A stretch of DNA of 64,000 nucleotides from Falsiroseomonas tokyonensis (GTDB lineage: Bacteria > Pseudomonadota > Alphaproteobacteria > Acetobacterales > Acetobacteraceae), in NCBI RefSeq assembly GCF_019024325.1, contig NZ_JAFNJS010000005.1, positions 434,001-498,000 of the forward strand. The letters run 5' to 3'. Both the position numbers and the translations under genes were made by a program. Shown here one piece after another: positions 13,344 to 23,038 of this stretch (within the stretch, counting starts at the first letter, position 1; each line of letters starts with the position of its first letter). Under the pieces are notes generated by a model that saw only the letters and a program-made list of their open reading frames with translations, was not told where the DNA came from and searched no databases.

Positions 13344-13551
13344 TCGCCGGGGAATATGCTGGCGGAGCGGCGAAAGGGGAAGGGGTCTCGGAGCCTGACC
13401 CGGAAGGTCGGCGGCTGAGGGCCGGTCGCGGATTTTTCGTCCTGGCCAGGACGGCAACGCCGCCGATGCTGGTTGCACCGGCAAGTTGTCGGACGCCGCC
13501 AGGGCGGAAAAGATGTCCCGGACCGACCCGACGATCTTTTGGGTCAGGCTC

Positions 13552-14049
13552 TCAGCCCAACGCGGCCCGCAGTTCCGCCAGCGAAGCCTCCAGGCTGCGC
13601 CCCGCCGTGTCGATGCGCAGCGGCGGGCGGTCCCAGCCTTCGTAGGCGCGGCCCTTCACCGCCGCCCAGCTGGGTGGAACGAGGCCGGGGATGTCGATGT
13701 GCCGGGTCTCGACCCGGCGGCGGTGCTCGGCGGGGTCGGAGCAGACGACCTCCACCTCCACGATCCGTGCGCCGGCCCGCCGCGCCGCCTGGCGCCAGGC
13801 CGTGCGGGTGATCTGCAGCGGGTTCACGCTGTCCGCCACCACGTCCAGGCCGAGCGCGAGATTGGCCTCCGCCAGCGCATAGCCGGCCAGGTAACCGGCC
13901 GGCCCGACCTCCGCGATGCCGGCCTCGCGCAGCGCCTGCTCGATATGGTCGATGCGGATCCAGGTGGCGCCGAGCGCCTGGGCCAGGCCGCGAGCCAGGG
14001 TGGATTTGCCGGTGCCCGGCAGGCCGGCGAAGGCGAGGAGGAGGCTCAC
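13552..14049 (-). CDS. P-loop kinase-like protein (AAA_33 type)
   Basis: 165-aa small NTPase. Walker A is GLPGTGKST at residues 9-17, followed by a helix and the IRIDHIEQALRE strand-helix, a layout like zeta-toxin, gluconate-kinase or polynucleotide-kinase-type phosphotransferases. DVVADSVNPLQITR fits the second acidic strand, and the late VETRHIDIPG segment may form the lid with Arg residues. The substrate cannot be named. The start overlaps the MOSC gene stop by 4 bp. The 208-base gap on its 3' side, up to the helicase start, must hold the helicase promoter. Confidence 0.8.
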   Translation of the reverse strand: MSLLLAFAGLPGTGKSTLARGLAQALGATWIRIDHIEQALREAGIAEVGPAGYLAGYALAEANLALGLDVVADSVNPLQITRTAWRQAARRAGARIVEVEVVCSDPAEHRRRVETRHIDIPGLVPPSWAAVKGRAYEGWDRPPLRIDTAGRSLEASLAELRAALG

Positions 14050-14588
14050 ACCCGTTCCAGCGCCCGATGTGGCTCCGCCGGCAATTCCACGCGCAGCGTA
14101 TCACCCGCCGCCAGCTCCCCGCCCTCCACCACCACCGCCATGATTCCGGCCCGCAGCAGCAGCGCCCCATCCGGCGCCCGTTCCAGCGTCGCCTTCATCA
14201 GCCCCTTCTGGAAATCGTCGAGCTGGTGGCAGGGGTTGCGCAGCCCTGTCACCTCCACCACCGCCGTCGCGCCCAGATGCAGCCGGCTGCCGCGGGGCAG
14301 GGCAAAGAGGTCGACGCCCTCCGTCGTCACATTCTCGCCGAGCGCGCCCGGCGCCACGTCGAATCCCTGGGCGCGCAGCGAGGCGAGGCGTTCGGCCGGG
14401 ATCAGGTGCAGCTGGCGCAGGTTCGGCTGGTTCGGATTCGCCCGCACGCGGGACCGATGCTTTACCAGCTCCCCGCAATGCGCATCGCCCTGCACGCCGA
14501 GCCCGGCCAGCAGCGTGATGCGCGGCAGCACCGGCTTCGAGAACTCATGGCCCGACGAGGCCGCCACCGCCACCACACGACCCTGCAT
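14046..14588 (-). CDS. MOSC domain-containing protein
   Basis: 180-aa single-domain MOSC protein. Such domains bind the sulfurated molybdenum cofactor through a conserved Cys and take part in sulfur transfer or N-hydroxylated compound reduction. The hallmark residues are visible: GVQGDAH at 31-37, GALGENVTTEG at 81-91, and the cofactor Cys as C120 in GLRNPCHQ. No N-terminal beta-barrel or ferredoxin domain is fused, unlike mARC/YcbX. Its stop overlaps the kinase start. The pairing of MOSC and a small kinase is noted but gives no clear function. Confidence 0.9.
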   Translation of the reverse strand: MQGRVVAVAASSGHEFSKPVLPRITLLAGLGVQGDAHCGELVKHRSRVRANPNQPNLRQLHLIPAERLASLRAQGFDVAPGALGENVTTEGVDLFALPRGSRLHLGATAVVEVTGLRNPCHQLDDFQKGLMKATLERAPDGALLLRAGIMAVVVEGGELAAGDTLRVELPAEPHRALERV

Positions 14589-14615
14589 GCCCTGATCTCC
14601 GCCTGACGGCGGCGG

Positions 14616-15083
14616 TTATTGCAGGAATCCGATCCAGCGTCCCGCCAGCAGCGCGCCCAGCCAGGCCGCCAGCGACACCGCCGCCGCCACCCGCAGCCGC
14701 CCCGCCACCGCCCCGCCGGCCAGCGCCGCGCGCCAGGGCCGCCCGGCATGAAGCAGTGCCAGGTTCAGGACCGCCAGCGCCAGCAGCGCCAGCTTCGCCA
14801 GGAAGGCCGGATTCTCCAGGTAGGTCCCCGGCCGCGTGCTGAACAGCGCGAGGCCCGTCAGCGCCGCCAGGCCGAGCCCCACCCCCGCCACCCGCACCAG
14901 CGGCGGCGCCAGCACCGCCACCGGCGCGGCCCGGAAGGCGCCCAGCAGCCGCAGGTCGAGCGTCGCGATGGCGCCGACCAGCAGGCCGAGCCCCAGCACA
15001 TGCGCCGCATTCACCAGCAGATAGAACGTGACGGAGCCGCGCAGCGCCACCGCGGGGGCGGAGGCCGCGAGCAGGTCCAGCAC
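14616..15083 (-). CDS. DUF6644-like four-helix membrane protein
   Basis: 155-aa integral membrane protein with four hydrophobic segments near residues 20-42, 58-82, 90-112 and 125-150. The first helix contains YLLVNAAHVLGLGLLVGAI, where His could bind a haem or metal; the loop TRPGTYLENPAFLAKL is typical of this uncharacterised family. Six bases separate it from the upstream DUF6152 gene, and the two families commonly sit together, so an envelope copper- or electron-transfer role has been guessed. I cannot confirm that from sequence. Confidence 0.7.
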   Translation of the reverse strand: MLDLLAASAPAVALRGSVTFYLLVNAAHVLGLGLLVGAIATLDLRLLGAFRAAPVAVLAPPLVRVAGVGLGLAALTGLALFSTRPGTYLENPAFLAKLALLALAVLNLALLHAGRPWRAALAGGAVAGRLRVAAAVSLAAWLGALLAGRWIGFLQ

Positions 15084-15089
15084 GCGCCG

Positions 15090-15491
15090 TCAGCCGCCCT
15101 GGATGCGCTCCGGATAGAAGTCGAAGCGCCGGTTGCCGGCGGTCACCCGCACCGCCTTCAGCCGACGCTCCGAACTGTCGCGGGACCGGTTGCCGAGCGC
15201 CACGATCTCCTGCCCCGGGCGCAGCGAGGTCTCGGTGAAGCCGGCGCGTTCGGTCTGGCGCGGATTGCCCAGCTCCACCGTCCAGATCTGGCCATTGGCC
15301 TCGACGCGCAGCGTCGGGTGCGGCGGGCCGACATAGATTTCCCGCACCGTGCCGGTCAGCGTGCCCTGCTCGCCCTCGGCCCAGGACCAGCCGTGATGGG
15401 CGAGCGCGGTGCCCGTGCCGGCCCCCAGGCTGGCGCCGATGCTGCCGAGCAGGCCGAGCGCGCCGCGCCGGCCGATTTTCGTGAAGGCCAT
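15090..15491 (-). CDS. DUF6152-family exported protein
   Basis: 133-aa secreted protein. The N-terminus MAFTKIGRRGALGLLGSIG has a twin-arginine-like start and a hydrophobic core ending AHHGW; HHGWSW right after the cleavage region is the family hallmark. The remainder is a small beta domain (GTVREIYVGPPHPTLRVE..., then GQEIVALGNRS). Start 15491 has GGAGGA 5 bases upstream, better than ATG 15503 or the far-upstream codon at 15572. It is followed after 6 bases by the DUF6644-like gene. Function unknown; the HH pair suggests metal binding. Confidence 0.75.
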   Translation of the reverse strand: MAFTKIGRRGALGLLGSIGASLGAGTGTALAHHGWSWAEGEQGTLTGTVREIYVGPPHPTLRVEANGQIWTVELGNPRQTERAGFTETSLRPGQEIVALGNRSRDSSERRLKAVRVTAGNRRFDFYPERIQGG

Positions 15492-15568
15492 GTCATCCTC
15501 CATCCCTTCGCCTGCCGCAGGTTGGGTCCACCTGTCGGCATGTCGAGTCGGGCAGGATGACAAGCCGT

Positions 15569-15811
15569 TCATCCGGGCAGGCGCGCATTCACCATCGCCA
15601 CCAGGTCGCCGAAGGTCGGGCAGTCCGCCAGCAGCGCCGCATCCACCGCGGCGCCCGTCTCCGCCTCGATCTCCACGCTGATCAGCGTGTGGTTCAGGCT
15701 GTCCCAGCCGGGCACATCGGCGGCCTCCATCTCCGGCGCCAGGACGATCTCCCGGTCGCCGATCACCGTGCGGGCAATGGCCTGCAGATGGGCCAGGGTG
15801 AAGGCGGGCAT
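15569..15811 (-). CDS. Acyl carrier protein
   Basis: 80-aa ACP. The phosphopantetheine site is S38 in GWDSLNH, at the start of helix II; MEAADVPGW precedes it and CPTFGDLVAMVNARL forms helix IV. A stand-alone ACP next to an adenylating enzyme is the usual arrangement for loading of acyl groups outside fatty-acid synthesis. ATG 15811 is preferred, since GGAG lies 8 bases upstream; GTG 15820, overlapping the ligase stop, is the alternative. It follows the ligase gene by 5 bases in the same operon. The carried acyl group is unknown. Confidence 0.85.
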   Translation of the reverse strand: MPAFTLAHLQAIARTVIGDREIVLAPEMEAADVPGWDSLNHTLISVEIEAETGAAVDAALLADCPTFGDLVAMVNARLPG

Positions 15812-15816
15812 GGGGG

Positions 15817-17447
<1,631 letters not shown>

Positions 17448-17451
<4 letters not shown>

Positions 17452-18476
17452 GCGGCCATGCCCCAGTTCTGCAGGCAGGCCAGCAGCGCCTCCGCATAGG
17501 CCTGCTCGAAGTCCAGCCCCTGGGCGCTGTCGGCCTCGTCGTCATTCGCCCAGACATAGCGCGGATGCGGATAGGGAACGGCGATCAGCGCCGTGCCATC
17601 CTCCAGCCAGGTCAGGCCACGGGTGCCGCCGCGGCGCGGCTGGCTGGTGAGGATCAGGCGGCAGTCCGGCTGGCCGGTGGCGCGCGCCAATGCCTGGCGC
17701 AGCGGGGCGAGGAAGGGGATGGGCGCCTTGGGTGGCACATCGACGCGGCTGTCGCCCATCAGGAAGACCAGCCCCTCCGCCCGGCAGGATTGGCGGAAGG
17801 ACTCGGCGCGGAGGGTCAGCGACTGGCGCAGGCCGGCGTAATCCTCATCCAGCCAGGCGGGGCCGCGATGGTGGTTCCACACCGCGCCGCCATCCTGGCG
17901 CATGGCGATGCGCTGGCCCTGCGGCGTCGTCGCCTCCCGCATCAGCGCGGGCTCGGCATAGGCGCCGAAATCCTGCGCGATGGCCTGCACCACCGTATCC
18001 GCCTTATGCACCGCCATGCAGAAGGGATTCTGCAGGCTGATGAACTGCGGCGTGTCCCGGAAGCCCCAGCGGTTCACCAGTGTCCAGGGCAGGCAGTGCA
18101 GGCCGAGCGAGACGAGGGTGAGGGGGCCCTTACGGCCTGCTTGAAGCCGCAGGCGGAAATCCTGCCGCCGCGCCACCGCCTGCCAGACCGGGCGCAGCCC
18201 CGCATCCTGCTCTGCCCGGTCGCGCAGCGCATCCAGCAGCCCCTGCAGCAGCGACGGCTCCAGGCAGGCGCGTTCCCCGAAGCGAAGCAGGAACAGCAGA
18301 TGCGAAAGGGAGGGTTGCGCAATCCGGTCGAGATGCGCGACCGCCTGGCGCAGCAGGGACTGGAAGGCCTCGTGCTTCTCGGCATGGAACAGCTGGCGCA
18401 GGCTGGCGCCGAGCGGGCCCTCCTGCGTCAGATCCACATCCGGCGCGGCCCGCGGCACGGCGTGGCTGGCGTTCAT
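17448..18476 (-). CDS. DUF1796-like (putative papain-like) protein, paralogue A
   Basis: 342-aa protein, not firmly recognised. The C-terminal two thirds carry a conserved Ser-Leu-Gly-x-x-Cys motif (SLGLHC, C128) followed by PF at 151-152, a DFGAY stretch, then WNHHRGP at 200-206 and a C-terminal YVWANDDEADS. This order of Cys, PF, DF and His matches my memory of DUF1796, predicted papain-like cysteine enzymes, so C128 and a His in NHH are catalytic candidates. The N-terminal 115 residues are helical. It is a clear paralogue of the upstream gene and overlaps it and the ligase by 4 bp each. An ACP-dependent acyltransferase role, as in the papain-fold BtrH, is an inference from context. Confidence 0.6.
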
Positions 18477-19597
18477 GCCTCGGCGGGCGCCGCCAGGCGC
18501 TGCAGCACGCCCCAGCGCAGCAGGCTGCGGATCAGCGTCAGCATGTAGCTGCGCTCGAACTCCTGCCCCGCCGGGCTGTCGGCCACCGCATCGTCGTGCC
18601 AGACGTAGTCGGGGGAAGGGAAGGGGCTGTAGGCGAAGGTGGTGCTGGCATTCACGCGCAGGCTGGCGGCCGCAGGCCGATGCGCGGTGTGGTTGGTGAT
18701 CAGGATGCGGTTGCCGCCGCGGCCGGTGAAACGCGCTAGCGCCGCATCCAGTGCGGGCAGGAAATCCAGCTTCTCCTCCGGATATTCCACCTGGCAGCCG
18801 GCCAGCAGGAAGACCGCATCCGGCCGGCGGCAGGCCGCCCGGAACAGCGCGGCCTTGGCCTGCATGCTGGCGCGCAGCGGGGCGGCATCCTGCCCCAGCC
18901 AGTAGGGGCCGCGATTATGGTTCCAATGCGCCGCGCGGTCCTTGCGCATGGCCATATCCTGCCCGCGCGTGGTGGTGACGATGCGCAGCGTCTCCGGCGT
19001 GCAATAGGTGGCGAAATCCTCCTCCAGCGCCGCGATCATGCCGGGGATGCGGTGGCCGGCGAGGGAGAAGGGGCCGAAGAGCGCGGTGAAATCCTCCTCC
19101 CGCCGCAACCCCCAGCGGCCCGGCAGGTGCCAGGGCAGGCAGTTGGTTCCGAGCGAGATGAGGGAGACGCCGCCGGCGAAGCGGGTGGGCATCGCATCCC
19201 GGTAATTCTGCCGCCGCCGCGCGGCGCGCCAGGCCAGCAGTAGTTCGGGCGCGGCCAGCGCGGCGGGCCTGGTCGCATCCAGCGCGGCGGCGATCTCGGC
19301 CGGTGGCAGGCAGCAGCGTTCGGCGAAGCGCAGCAGCGTGGCGAGCCATTGTACGGTGGCCGGCGGCAGCGCGCCGCCCGGCAGCCCCGCTGCGCCGAGT
19401 GCGGCAAGCTGCCGGCGCGTGGCCTGCTGCAGCCCGGCATAGTCCTGCAATTCGAACAGATAGCGCAGCTGGATATAGCCGGCCTGCGGGTCCGCCGCCG
19501 CGTCGATGCCGGCCAGCGACTGCACCGCGCCGGGCAGGTCACCCGCTTCGCGAAGCCGCGCTGCCTGGCGCAGGGGGGAGGCGTCCGGATGTGTCAT
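18473..19597 (-). CDS. DUF1796-like (putative papain-like) protein, paralogue B
   Basis: 374-aa paralogue of the next gene. Shared signatures: SLGTNC with C153, RWG at 161-163, GPF at 175-177, EEDFATY, then HWNHNRGPYWL at 224-234, and near the C-terminus YVWHDDAVADS. The N-terminal 100 residues are Ala/Leu-rich helices with a repeat-like look (LREAGDLPGAVQSL). Start 19597 is chosen since the protein then aligns with its paralogue; in-frame ATGs at 19660 and 19741 would add a 16-bp-repeat-encoded leader. It is the first gene of the overlapping run B, A, ligase, ACP. Keeping both Cys and His in both copies argues that each is an active enzyme with different substrates. Confidence 0.6.
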   Translation of the reverse strand: MTHPDASPLRQAARLREAGDLPGAVQSLAGIDAAADPQAGYIQLRYLFELQDYAGLQQATRRQLAALGAAGLPGGALPPATVQWLATLLRFAERCCLPPAEIAAALDATRPAALAAPELLLAWRAARRRQNYRDAMPTRFAGGVSLISLGTNCLPWHLPGRWGLRREEDFTALFGPFSLAGHRIPGMIAALEEDFATYCTPETLRIVTTTRGQDMAMRKDRAAHWNHNRGPYWLGQDAAPLRASMQAKAALFRAACRRPDAVFLLAGCQVEYPEEKLDFLPALDAALARFTGRGGNRILITNHTAHRPAAASLRVNASTTFAYSPFPSPDYVWHDDAVADSPAGQEFERSYMLTLIRSLLRWGVLQRLAAPAEA

Positions 19598-19630
19598 GCC
19601 TGCCGCTTGTCTGGGCGGGGCATTGGCCCC

Positions 19631-19662
19631 GCCGCCTGTTTCATCCGCCGCCTGTTTCATCC
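19631..19662. repeat. Tandem perfect 16-bp repeat
   Basis: GCCGCCTGTTTCATCC occurs twice without a spacer (19631-19646 and 19647-19662), 34 bases upstream of the first gene of the ligase/ACP operon. On the minus strand it duplicates an ATG and nearby purines, so it might add a second initiation site or a regulator site in the 257-base leader region. It could also be replication slippage. Confidence 0.6.
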
Positions 19663-19854
19663 TCTGCCGGGCGGCATCGTCCCGGTGAAGGCCGGCGCCC
19701 CCGGGGGTCCGGCCGAGCGATATGTGCAGGGTAATGCCCATCCCGGCAAGGCCGCGCAGCAGGCAGTGGCCGATGCGCCGGTCGCCGCGGCAGGTCTCCG
19801 GCCAGCCTTCGCGCCTCAGCCTGCCGCCCGCCCAGCCCGGGGGGCGGGCCGGCT

Positions 19855-21777
19855 TCAGGCACCGGACTCATCCGCGGCACCCGGCTTGCCGGCGCCACCC
19901 GCCTGGCCTGGGCGCTTCAGGATCAGCCCGCGGCCGGCAAGGTCCAGCAGCACCGTCTCGCCCAGCCGGGTCCATTCGCGGCGATTGCCGGCCCAAAGTT
20001 CCTGCATGTCCTCGCGCAGCTTGGCGCTGCTCAGCCCGGGATTGGCGCGCAGATGCAGCTGGCGCCAGATGCTCTGGCCCAGGGTGCGGGAGAGTTCCGG
20101 CAGGTCCTCCATCACCGGCTCCGGCAGGGTCTGGGCCGCGGCGGGGCGGGGCGGGGCGGGGGGGGCGCTTGGCGCCGCGGAAGGCGGCTCGGCCGGGGTG
20201 GCGGCGAAATTGGGCACGGCCAGGCCGATGGCGATATGCGCGCGCAGCGCCTCCGCCTGTTCCGGCCGGGCCAGCTGGGCGACGATGAACAGGTCGCGCC
20301 CGCTCTCGCTGCCATCCCGCGGGTTCCAGTGGCCGGCATAGGTGATGTCGAAGCCCAGCTTCTCCAGCAGCGGCCGCACCAGGCCGTAGCTCTGGAATTC
20401 GAAGCGCGCGCAGGTCTGCCCCTGGAAGGCGAAGTAGCGTCGGATATCGGCCAGCAACCGGGCAAAGCCGGCCTCCGTCGTCGCATCCGCCAGCTGCAGC
20501 ACCAGCCAGCCGCCGGGCCGCAGCAGCAGCGCGGCGTTCAGCCAATAGGCAAGCTGGTATTGCAGGTCGACATGCACCATGGCGTCGATGCTGAAGACCG
20601 CGTCGATGTCCCGCGCCAGGCCCTCGCGCTCGAACAGCTTCAGCATGCCGTCCGGATGCACCGGATCGACCGGCTGGAAGCCCAGCCGCCCGGCGGCCAC
20701 CGCCTCTGGCAGCTTCGCCGCCGCCGCCTTCATCAGCCGCTCGCTGACATCGAAGACGGTCAGCTGCAGCGTGGGATTGGCCTGCAGCACCTCCGCCGTG
20801 AAGCGGGCATCGCCGGTGCCGATCTCGATCGCCCGGCGCCAGCGGCCGATCTCCGCCATGTCGAACAGCCGCCGGCGCACCGCGGCCGCATCCGGCCGGT
20901 CCCCCCGCCCCGCCAAGGCGCGGGAGGCTTCGCGAGTCCAGTAGTCGGCATAGGAATCGGGGCGGCCGGACTGGCCGGGCGGGGTCGCGGCGGGGTCGGC
21001 GCGCAGCGCGTCGCGGAAGGCTTCGGCCTTCGCCGGATCGGCCAGTCGGGCGCTGAGATAAAGGTCGCGCGGCGGCCGGCCGGGATGGTTGGACCAGGGC
21101 TCCAGCAGCTCGATCTCGAAGCCCAGCCGCGTGAGGATGGCGCGCACGATATCGGTCGAGAGGTATTCGAACTTCGGGCAGATGCGGCCCTGCATCCGGT
21201 AGAACTTGCGAATGTCGCGCAGGATCTTCTGGAAGCCACCGCCGGTATTGGGGTCGGCCAGCGTCATCAGCACGCGGCCGCCGGGCTTCAGCAGCAGCGC
21301 CGCATTCATCCAATAGGTGGTCAGGTAGGTGAGGTCGACATGGACCATGGCATCGATGCTGAAGACTGCATCCAGCCGCCGCGCCTGCCCTGCCTCCGCC
21401 AGCAGGGTGAACATCCCGTCGGGATGGGCCGCATCGATCTCATGCAGCGAAAGCCGGCCGGCCTTGATGTCGTCGCCCAGCCGCGCCGCGGTGGCATCCA
21501 GGAAATTGCGGGAAACATCGAAGCCCCAGACCCGCACCGCCTGGCCTGCGCGCAGCACGCGCTCTGTGTACTTGCCGCTGCCGCCGCCGATCTCGATCGC
21601 TGCCTGCCAGGACTGTACGCCGGCGGGGACGAAGAGCTTGTCGAAGATGCGCTGCCAGCTTGCCTCATTGCCCCATTCCTGGCCGGGCCAGGCGAGGCGC
21701 TGGTCCTCCTTCTGCAGGCGCGGGAAGGACTCGGCGACATAGACGTCCCAGAGCTGGCCATAGGTCTGCTTCTGCAT
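19855..21777 (-). CDS. Tandem class I SAM-dependent methyltransferase with C-terminal helical domain
   Basis: 640-aa protein built from an internal duplication. Unit 1 (about 59-245) has motif I IEIGGGSGKYTE and unit 2 (about 315-503) IEIGTGDARFTA. Both share the block FSIDAMVHVDL followed by YW.NAALLL.PGG, spaced 256 residues apart (138-167 and 394-423), then D..KFY or D..RYF and a G..C..FE segment. A Pro/Ala linker (522-556) leads to a separate helical domain (558-622) of unknown role. The start MQKQTYGQLWDVYVAESF is natural; 67 upstream in-frame codons are Arg/Pro-rich. It lies upstream of the DUF1796/ligase/ACP operon in the same direction after 257 bases. Substrate unknown. Confidence 0.8.
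   Translation of the reverse strand: MQKQTYGQLWDVYVAESFPRLQKEDQRLAWPGQEWGNEASWQRIFDKLFVPAGVQSWQAAIEIGGGSGKYTERVLRAGQAVRVWGFDVSRNFLDATAARLGDDIKAGRLSLHEIDAAHPDGMFTLLAEAGQARRLDAVFSIDAMVHVDLTYLTTYWMNAALLLKPGGRVLMTLADPNTGGGFQKILRDIRKFYRMQGRICPKFEYLSTDIVRAILTRLGFEIELLEPWSNHPGRPPRDLYLSARLADPAKAEAFRDALRADPAATPPGQSGRPDSYADYWTREASRALAGRGDRPDAAAVRRRLFDMAEIGRWRRAIEIGTGDARFTAEVLQANPTLQLTVFDVSERLMKAAAAKLPEAVAAGRLGFQPVDPVHPDGMLKLFEREGLARDIDAVFSIDAMVHVDLQYQLAYWLNAALLLRPGGWLVLQLADATTEAGFARLLADIRRYFAFQGQTCARFEFQSYGLVRPLLEKLGFDITYAGHWNPRDGSESGRDLFIVAQLARPEQAEALRAHIAIGLAVPNFAATPAEPPSAAPSAPPAPPRPAAAQTLPEPVMEDLPELSRTLGQSIWRQLHLRANPGLSSAKLREDMQELWAGNRREWTRLGETVLLDLAGRGLILKRPGQAGGAGKPGAADESGA
20143..20165 (+). other. 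Potential G-quadruplex tract inside methyltransferase gene
   Basis: On the plus strand four G-runs of 4, 4, 4 and 8 bases are separated by single C residues. This fits an intramolecular quadruplex with one-base loops. On the coding (minus) strand the tract encodes the Pro/Ala linker, so it may be a by-product of codon choice. Confidence 0.6.
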
Positions 21778-21976
21778 TGCGCCCCGCTTCGTCCCGGCTC
21801 CGCCCGGTCGCGGCCCCCGGCCACTTCTGGCATAGGTTACCAGGGGGTTACTCGGGAGGGAAGCCAATGCTGCGGCGCGGCGCGGCGGGGCCTTCCGCCT
21901 TTCGTGTTGCCCTGGCCGCGCCTGCACGGTGCCGCGGCCCCTTGTCTGCCTCGCCGGCCGAGCGATCTGGGGTGGC

Positions 21977-23038
21977 ATGCCTCACCCCGAGACCTGGATG
22001 CGCGTGACCCCGCAGGGCCTCTACTGCATCCCCGGCGATTTCTTCATCGACCCCGCCCGCCCCGTGCCGATGGCCGTCATCACCCACGGCCATTCCGACC
22101 ATGCGCGGCCCGACCATGGCCGCGTGCTGGCCAGCGCCGAGACGCTGGCGGTGATGCGCATCCGCATGGGGGCGGACCGCGCCGGCCGCCAGCAGCAGGT
22201 GGTGGCGATGGGGGAGGTCGTGACCCATAACGGCGTCCAGATCCGGCTGGTGCCGGCGGGCCATGTGCTGGGGTCCTGCCAGGTGGTGCTGGACTGGCAG
22301 GGCAGCCGCATCGTCATTTCCGGCGACTACAAGCGCCGCCGCGACCCCACCTGCGCGCTGTTCGAGCCGGTGCCCTGCGACGTCTTCGTCACCGAGGCCA
22401 CCTTCGGCCTGCCGGTCTTCCGGCACCCGGATGCGGGGGCGGAGATCGGCCGGCTGCTGGAAAGCCTGCGGCTGTTCCCGGAGCGCACGCATCTCGTCGG
22501 CGCCTATGCGTTGGGCAAGGCGCAGCGGGTGATCGCCTTGCTGCGGGAGGCCGGCTGGGACCGGCCCATCTATCTGCACGGCGCGCTGCTGGCGCTGTGC
22601 GAGCTGTACGAAAGCCTCGGCGTGAAGCTGGGGCCGCTGGCGCCGGTGCCGGTGCCGGCCAAGCGGGGCGGCGGCGGGCTGCTGGCGGGGGAGGTCGTGC
22701 TGGCGCCGCCCTCGGCCGAGGCCACCGCCTGGGTGCGGCGATTGGCGGAGCCGGTGATCTGCGCCGCCTCCGGCTGGATGCGCGTGCGCCAGCGCGCCAA
22801 GGCCAAGGGCGTGGAACTGCCGCTGATCATCTCCGACCACGCCGATTGGGACGAGCTGCTGGACACGGTGGCGGAGGTGCAGGCGCCCGAGGTCTGGGTG
22901 ACGCATGGCCGCGACGATGCGCTGGTGCATGCGCTCGCGCTGCGCGGCATCCGCGGCCGTGCGCTGCATCTGCTCGGCCGTGGCGATGAGGAGGAGGACC
23001 AGGCGCCGGCCGAGGTGGTGGCGGAGGCCACGGCATGA
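21977..23038 (+). CDS. Ligase-associated DNA damage response exonuclease (MBL/beta-CASP type)
   Basis: 353-aa metallo-beta-lactamase-fold nuclease related to SNM1 and CPSF-73. The metal motif THGHSDH is near residue 32, VPAGHVLGSCQV near 95, and ISGDYKRRRDP follows; a late VTHGRDD supplies the last ligand. Homologues in bacteria are coded with an ATP-dependent ligase, an Lhr helicase and PdeM and are proposed to trim damaged DNA ends. Start 21977 (MPHPETWMRVTPQG) is used; M at 21998 is a possible alternative. It overlaps the ligase gene by 4 bp and is divergent from the methyltransferase. Confidence 0.9.
   Translation: MPHPETWMRVTPQGLYCIPGDFFIDPARPVPMAVITHGHSDHARPDHGRVLASAETLAVMRIRMGADRAGRQQQVVAMGEVVTHNGVQIRLVPAGHVLGSCQVVLDWQGSRIVISGDYKRRRDPTCALFEPVPCDVFVTEATFGLPVFRHPDAGAEIGRLLESLRLFPERTHLVGAYALGKAQRVIALLREAGWDRPIYLHGALLALCELYESLGVKLGPLAPVPVPAKRGGGGLLAGEVVLAPPSAEATAWVRRLAEPVICAASGWMRVRQRAKAKGVELPLIISDHADWDELLDTVAEVQAPEVWVTHGRDDALVHALALRGIRGRALHLLGRGDEEEDQAPAEVVAEATA

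What the first reader, a model, noticed from the sequence alone, without database searches (positions are those of the whole stretch)
15569..21777. Undescribed acyl-loading locus: ACP, acyl-AMP ligase, two papain-like DUF1796 paralogues and a double methyltransferase
Seen: five minus-strand genes in one direction. Four of them (paralogue B, paralogue A, ligase, ACP) overlap by 4 bp or are 5 bp apart; the methyltransferase is 257 bp upstream. Known: FAAL-type enzymes load acyl groups on ACP, and papain-fold proteins such as BtrH move acyl groups from ACP onto amines. Inferred: the duplicated SLGxxC/NHxRGP proteins are the acyltransferases, and the methyltransferase tailors the product or a substrate. 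I know of no named system with this gene set. The product may be a lipid, a glycan or protein modification, or a small metabolite.
Basis: partly seen in the sequence, partly recalled or inferred. Interest (0 to 1): 0.75.

Follow-up and report, generated by a model that had tools for sequence, protein, structure and literature searches.

The report
Ligase–carrier–DUF1796 acyl-transfer gene cassette
A Falsiroseomonas bacterium carries a small gene set that probably activates an acid, loads it on a carrier protein and hands it to two cysteine–histidine proteins of unknown function, which may attach it to a surface sugar; similar pairings recur in other genomes and give a testable function for an uncharacterised protein family.

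Summary
Five co-directional genes (double methyltransferase, SLGxxC paralogues B and A, FAAL-type ligase, ACP) recur in the same order in four genomes of the genus. The paralogues are distant DUF1796 relatives: below Pfam's cut-off, but 98.3% by profile-profile comparison. In 21 aligned sequences only G125, C128, H202 and G205 are invariant, fitting a Cys-His pair. No solved papain structure was matched, so 'papain-like' remains a label. The neighbourhood test is positive: the order SLGxxC-FAAL-ACP recurs in three genomes outside the genus; 11 of 23 FAAL loci in the family have an SLGxxC gene nearby against 0 of 16 control stretches (9 of those 11 helped build the models). Several others have WcbI or GSCFA genes. 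The cassette occupies a site where 6 of 11 sister genomes carry a glycosyltransferase. Best reading: FAAL loads an acid on ACP and the SLGxxC proteins transfer it, most likely to a surface glycan. Loading rests on homology; transfer and acceptor are inferred, and most solo relatives lack FAAL and ACP nearby. Text searches of the held PMC library found no paper naming DUF1796. New variant of a known kind, directly testable.

The parts
15569..15820 (-). Acyl carrier protein, 83 aa (80 aa from the ATG at 15811); phosphopantetheine serine in GWDSLNHT
   Evidence: PF00550 above cut-off; Ser38, with A30, G35 and W36, invariant in the 13 ACPs aligned from FAAL loci
15817..17451 (-). FAAL-type acyl-AMP ligase, 544 aa
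   Evidence: PF00501 129 bits; best NCBIfam models include fatty acyl-AMP ligases, all below their curated cut-offs; best stretches to FadD23 and a fatty acyl-adenylate ligase run almost end to end, those to CoA ligases start at residue 321 or later
17448..18476 (-). Paralogue A, 342 aa: helical N-terminal part plus SLGxxC domain (C128, H157, N201-H202)
   Evidence: Invariant residues; model pLDDT 81.7; Foldseek matches to viral proteins annotated papain-like cysteine peptidase
18473..19741 (-). Paralogue B, 422 aa from the longest start, 374 aa from 19597: helical, TPR-like N-terminal part plus SLGxxC domain (C153, H182, N226-H227 in the 374-aa form)
   Evidence: Alignment; model pLDDT 81.7; TPR structures among weak Foldseek hits (best E 0.44)
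19855..21978 (-). Double class-I SAM methyltransferase with C-terminal extension, 707 aa from the longest start, 640 aa from 21777
   Evidence: PF08242 and PF13649, two stretches each; conserved in four genomes; partial copy at the contig start in L039

Best explanation
The cassette is an ACP-dependent acylation module. Step 1 (supported by homology): the FAAL-type ligase activates a carboxylic acid as acyl-AMP and loads it on the phosphopantetheine of the dedicated ACP. Step 2 (inferred): the SLGxxC proteins A and B, distant DUF1796 relatives, take the acyl group from the ACP on their conserved cysteine, helped by the conserved histidine of the NH motif, and pass it to an acceptor. Their helical N-terminal parts may hold the ACP or the acceptor. 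Step 3 (inferred from context only): the acceptor is most likely a sugar of a surface glycan or its precursor; the double methyltransferase tailors the same product. Two paralogues that both keep Cys and His suggest two acceptor positions or a heterodimer. The acid is unknown.
For: Same five genes in order in four genomes. The order SLGxxC-FAAL-ACP recurs outside the genus: G157 with methyltransferase and one paralogue, G244 and G074 with the three-gene core. Reverse survey: an SLGxxC gene near 11 of 23 FAAL loci, 0 of 16 control stretches, in several branches of the FAAL tree. Only G125, C128, H202, G205 invariant in 21 aligned sequences. Distant homology to DUF1796 (98.3%) and to a TPR-SLGxNCEFG family (94.5%). 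Glycan context: one relative (L050) lies beside an FkbH-type gene and an ACP-like small gene (named by eye; no Pfam match), another (L049) is followed by a glycosyltransferase; a viral protein annotated glycosyltransferase is A's top hit in BFVD; two GSCFA genes stand beside the cassette in G007; 6 of 11 sister genomes have a glycosyltransferase at the cassette's site.
Against: I found no tested activity for the superfamily (searches). No solved fold matches, and no coordinates were at hand to measure a Cys-His distance. No glycosyltransferase lies inside the cassette. In 9 of the 12 stretches fetched around relatives outside the genus, and around the solo copy in G007 (L017), no FAAL or ACP match was found. 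12 of 23 FAAL loci lack an SLGxxC hit (one is cut by a contig end, others lie on short contigs). The SLGxNCEFG type was noticed because it lay beside FAALs and is common in the family, and 9 of the 11 positive loci supplied sequences for the models used, so that contrast is partly built in.
Confidence: 0.5

Rival explanations
1. A and B are thioesterases or editing hydrolases that release the acid from the ACP, or cysteine peptidases, and not transferases.
For: A Cys-His pair serves hydrolases as well; Pfam calls the family a putative papain-like cysteine peptidase.
Against: A dedicated ligase and ACP followed by mere hydrolysis would be futile (argument, not test); both paralogues are kept in all four cassettes. 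Signal peptides and peptide substrates were not looked for.
Confidence: 0.15
2. The cassette makes a small specialised metabolite (an acylated, methylated compound), not a glycan decoration.
For: FAAL and ACP pairs start many lipopeptide and polyketide pathways (recalled); a compact gene set with a methyltransferase; a GSCFA gene also occurs in the detoxin-like miramide cluster (PMC9503745, passages).
Against: No NRPS, PKS or transport family among the ten proteins scanned at 13552-23038; some FAAL loci and relatives lie near glycan-type genes.
Confidence: 0.2
3. The acceptor is a protein, for example a secreted calcium-binding repeat protein, acylated from ACP as HlyC-type enzymes do (comparison recalled).
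For: A 206-aa RTX-repeat protein sits beside the cassette in F. oleicola and a 610-aa one near a solo relative in G202.
Against: Beside one of four cassettes only. HlyC-type genes were not searched for.
Confidence: 0.1

Closest known systems
DUF1796 (PF08795)
   Same: SLGxxC motif and a later NH/HH motif; 98.3% profile-profile probability; the A/B-family member L048 passes Pfam's cut-off with 31.7 bits
   Different: A and B score below the cut-off, have PFxLAxH in place of PFDW and carry a helical N-terminal part; no function known for the family
BtrH (butirosin ACP:aminoglycoside acyltransferase, PF14399)
   Same: Acyl transfer from an ACP by a papain-superfamily enzyme (PMC10318531, passages)
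   Different: No profile similarity to the one BtrH_N protein compared; that paper places BtrH_N near C39 and C70, and its main text names neither DUF1796 nor PF08795
WcbI (PF18588), capsule biosynthesis
   Same: Putative glycan acyltransferase with Cys and His side chains at the acyl thioester, proposed to need a partner (PMC4104973, abstract and passages); WcbI genes stand near FAAL in L100 and L101
   Different: Not among the 50 PDB rows shown for either model; binds CoA
FAAL-ACP loading modules
   Same: Ligase and ACP as expected
   Different: Known ones feed polyketide, peptide or lipid assembly (recalled); here the partner is a DUF1796-type protein

Membership tests
FAAL | Near end-to-end similarity to fatty acyl-AMP ligases rather than CoA ligases | tested here: met
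   Best stretches 8hd4 (FadD23) 20-531, 3pbk (fatty acyl-adenylate ligase) 47-540; CoA ligases such as 4fuq 356-537, 3r44 358-539, 6qjz 321-531
FAAL | Forms acyl-AMP and loads an ACP, not CoA | not testable with these tools
   Needs an assay
Acyl carrier protein | Phosphopantetheine serine in a GWDS context | tested here: met
   PF00550 above cut-off; Ser invariant in 13 of 13 aligned
DUF1796 (PF08795) | Score over Pfam's gathering cut-off | tested here: not met
   A 12.3, B 14.9 against 23; linking relative L048 31.7
DUF1796 (PF08795) | Homology by profile comparison | tested here: met
   hhalign 98.3%, E 1.7e-14, SLGxxC aligned
DUF1796 (PF08795) | Fold like that of DUF1796 proteins | tested here: inconclusive
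   Top 7 BFVD hits at probability 1.00, 3 of them at E 0.001 or below; 6 of 7 bear the name papain-like cysteine peptidase, but their DUF1796 membership was not tested
DUF1796 (PF08795) | PFDW motif | tested here: not met
   PFxLAxH instead
Papain-like peptidase fold | Structural match to solved papain-like enzymes | tested here: inconclusive
   No PDB hit at E 0.001 or below and no papain among the 50 rows shown for either model; C128 opens a helix after a strand
BtrH | BtrH_N homology | tested here: inconclusive
   0.4% probability against a single BtrH_N protein; one sequence is a weak test
GSCFA / SGNH | Profile similarity | tested here: not met
   0.1% against two GSCFA proteins

The most novel reading that the evidence does not exclude
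The SLGxxC superfamily (A/B, canonical DUF1796, TPR-SLGxNCEFG proteins, and structurally similar giant-virus proteins, one of them annotated glycosyltransferase) is an unrecognised class of carrier-dependent Cys-His acyltransferases with a fold not yet solved, which decorates glycans with acyl groups loaded by FAAL or by FkbH-type enzymes.
Probability: 0.3. Interest if true: 0.8.

Novelty: new variant of a known kind. Interest (0 to 1): 0.58.

Why it matters
Text searches of the held PMC library found no paper naming DUF1796 or PF08795. A compact cassette that supplies the acid activator, the carrier and the candidate enzyme makes the family's function directly testable in a tube. If right, it assigns an activity to a family of bacteria (and, by name and predicted structure, giant viruses), adds a new end step to carrier-based acylation, and suggests where WcbI- and GSCFA-type proteins near FAAL genes may get their acyl donor.

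Tried and rejected
Tried without result: plasmid collection with B (none); viral contigs with B (none); solved-structure sequence searches with the A/B profiles and with DUF1796 (best E 0.11, unrelated proteins); solved structures for the methyltransferase (none); promoter and terminator scan (no more than in shuffles). Phylum and class surveys with the A/B profiles found no match outside the family (1 of 398 genomes; 2 of 289), but at most 5-6 candidates per genome were scored, so absence is not shown. The idea that A/B belong to the GSCFA/SGNH group because of a similar G-x-x-C motif was rejected. My first tally of SLGxxC genes at FAAL loci (10 of 23, notebook) missed L098 and became 11 of 23. 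Neighbourhood tally of canonical DUF1796: 16 stretches fetched (the place on G087:C108 was not fetched), proteins of 120-900 aa called, 140 of 159 used (14 of 16 stretches); control 136 of 152 (14 of 16 stretches). Among the 25 commonest families shown, glycosyltransferase models matched 4, 3, 3, 2 and 2 members against 2, 2 and 2 in the control; the families overlap in members, so this is weak.

Full report
What is there. The window is G000:C45:434001-498000. Two cassette-bearing relatives in its genus lie on contigs of the same length and match position as records of Falsiroseomonas (Roseomonas) oleicola and of a Falsiroseomonas MAG (taxonomy). On the minus strand, 15569-21978 holds, in order of transcription, a double methyltransferase, B, A, a FAAL-type ligase and an ACP. 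The last four overlap or are 5 bp apart. The flanks are a ligase-associated exonuclease and DNA ligase on one side, and DUF6152, a DUF6644-like protein (below cut-off), MOSC, a small AAA_33 ATPase and the ligase-associated helicase on the other.

Conservation in the genus. B hits 4 of 59 genomes searched, own genome included, which is 3 of the 14 other genus members. In all four, the five genes stand in the same order between the same flanking genes. The exonuclease is in 15 of 15 genus genomes. In the 11 without the cassette, the gap between exonuclease and helicase is empty in 2 (G004, G011), holds a glycosyltransferase gene in 6 (GT61 in G006, G008, G003, G005, G012; Core-2/I-branching in G009), holds a chemotaxis-type gene in 1 (G013), and could not be judged in 2 (G014, contig end; G010, helicase not seen) (the helicase was confirmed by model in G004, G005, G009 and G011 and read by eye elsewhere). 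So this is a variable site that often holds glycan genes. In G007 two GSCFA genes of lower third-position GC lie there beside the cassette, and in F. oleicola an RTX-repeat gene does.

The paralogues. A and B are 35-40% identical. Pfam gives DUF1796 below its cut-off for both. In 21 aligned A/B-family sequences the invariant residues are G125, C128, H202 and G205 of A. As a profile this set matches seven DUF1796 proteins at 98.3% (E 1.7e-14) with SLGxxC aligned; the member L048 passes Pfam's cut-off. The Cys is kept in 6 of the 7 DUF1796 proteins. AlphaFold models of A and B from six sequences reach pLDDT 81.7 each. Neither has a PDB match at E 0.001 or below. Against viral models, A's first seven hits have probability 1.00 (3 of them E 0.001 or below; TM-score by query length 0.33-0.49): a glycosyltransferase of Pyramimonas orientalis virus over 237 columns, then six giant-virus proteins named papain-like cysteine peptidase, the name Pfam gives DUF1796; their DUF1796 membership was not tested. 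Kinship with DUF1796 is thus supported; a papain fold is neither shown nor excluded. B's N-terminal part resembles TPR structures, weakly (best E 0.44).

The loading pair. The ligase's best stretches to FAAL structures run almost end to end, those to CoA ligases start at residue 321 or later. The ACP keeps its serine.

Recurrence outside the genus. In 299 genomes of the family, 13 have an A/B-type match; 3 are in the genus. I fetched 12 stretches from the ten others. G157 (L039) has methyltransferase, one B-type gene, FAAL (60%) and ACP (65%). G244 (L043, a 6.9-kb contig) has an A/B-type gene, FAAL (49%) and ACP (54%). G074 (L047) has an A/B-type gene, FAAL (42%) and ACP (30%). The order is the same each time. 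In G327 (L050) a TPR-bearing relative converges with an FkbH-type gene and a small gene that I call ACP-like by eye from its WDSL motif; Pfam gave it no family. FkbH is known to make glyceryl-ACP (recalled). The second copy there (L049) is followed by a glycosyltransferase. In the other 9 of 12 stretches, L049 and L050 included, and at the solo copy in G007 (L017), no FAAL or ACP of this type was matched.

Reverse survey. The FAAL has 23 matches at E 1e-60 or below in 22 of 200 family genomes, with 7 candidates scored per genome. Among the 19 loci fetched for this, an ACP match lies in 14 of 19. Models of the A/B type and of a second, TPR-bearing SLGxNCEFG type (first noticed beside these FAALs) hit 11 of the 23 loci and 0 of 16 control stretches of the same family (314 kb against 192 kb, controls chosen by hand). 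Nine of the 11 loci supplied sequences for the models; L098 and L102 did not. The two SLGxxC types are related (94.5%, E 7.4e-8; DUF1796 against the second type 76.3%). On a tree of 25 FAALs (22 of the 23 plus G001, G002 and G244; L103 left out because only part of its FAAL was matched), SLGxxC partners occur in three or more well-supported branches, and two of these hold both types. Of the remaining loci, L100 and L101 have WcbI genes, L103 a borderline one, L104 the look-alike of L101's weakly WcbI-like gene (by eye), and L099 a GSCFA gene; L098 has a GDSL gene besides its SLGxxC gene. L088 is cut at the contig end; in L090, L093, L095, L096, L105 and L106 I saw none of these, though L095 and L096 have DUF4422 and WsaF genes, which I recall as glycosyltransferase-related. 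Against this, the SLGxNCEFG model matches 126 of 150 family genomes (many of these are TPR-only matches), so part of its co-location may be shared residence in glycan regions.

How it most likely works. FAAL charges the ACP; A and B take over the acyl group by Cys-His chemistry and pass it on; the methyltransferase tailors the product. Shown by sequence: gene set, order, recurrence, motif invariance, DUF1796 kinship. Inferred: transfer chemistry, acceptor, role of the methyltransferase. The methyltransferase was not matched in L043 and L047, and its first domain departs from the GGGSGKYT loop in two of the four genomes.

Known work. DUF1796 and PF08795 gave no paper in the held PMC text. A 2023 classification of papain-like enzymes names neither in its main text and places BtrH_N near C39 and C70 (PMC10318531, passages). 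WcbI binds CoA between a Cys and a His, showed no activity alone, and is proposed to need a partner (PMC4104973, abstract and passages). GSCFA is an SGNH family without known function (PMC9487903, passages). The search listings showed no title or abstract start that describes this system; apart from the BtrH paper those papers were not opened.

Noticed in passing
L012:4140-4760: F. oleicola has a 206-aa RTX-repeat protein with a double-glycine leader-like start between the methyltransferase and the exonuclease.
   Followed up: partly
L016:11066-13634: Two GSCFA genes of lower third-position GC, 32% identical to each other, lie beside the cassette in G007.
   Followed up: partly
window 13485-21929 and L124-L134: The junction between ligase-associated exonuclease and helicase is a variable site: GT61, Core-2/I-branching-type or chemotaxis genes, or nothing, in sister genomes.
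   Followed up: yes
L091:221-7149: Four tandem SLGxNCEFG genes, TPR-bearing in the two scanned, stand directly before a FAAL gene in G183.
   Followed up: partly
L050:7165-10646: An ACP-like small gene (by eye) plus an FkbH-type gene converge with a TPR-bearing DUF1796-like gene, suggesting a non-FAAL way of loading a carrier.
   Followed up: partly
L041:7726-13018: A solo DUF1796-like gene stands between a sulfatase and a 610-aa RTX-repeat protein.
   Followed up: no
L017:4264-8378 and L047:7807-13655: The solo relative in G007 and the FAAL/ACP module in G074 both lie beside a CaiB-type and an aldehyde-dehydrogenase-like gene (named by eye), though in different order.
   Followed up: no
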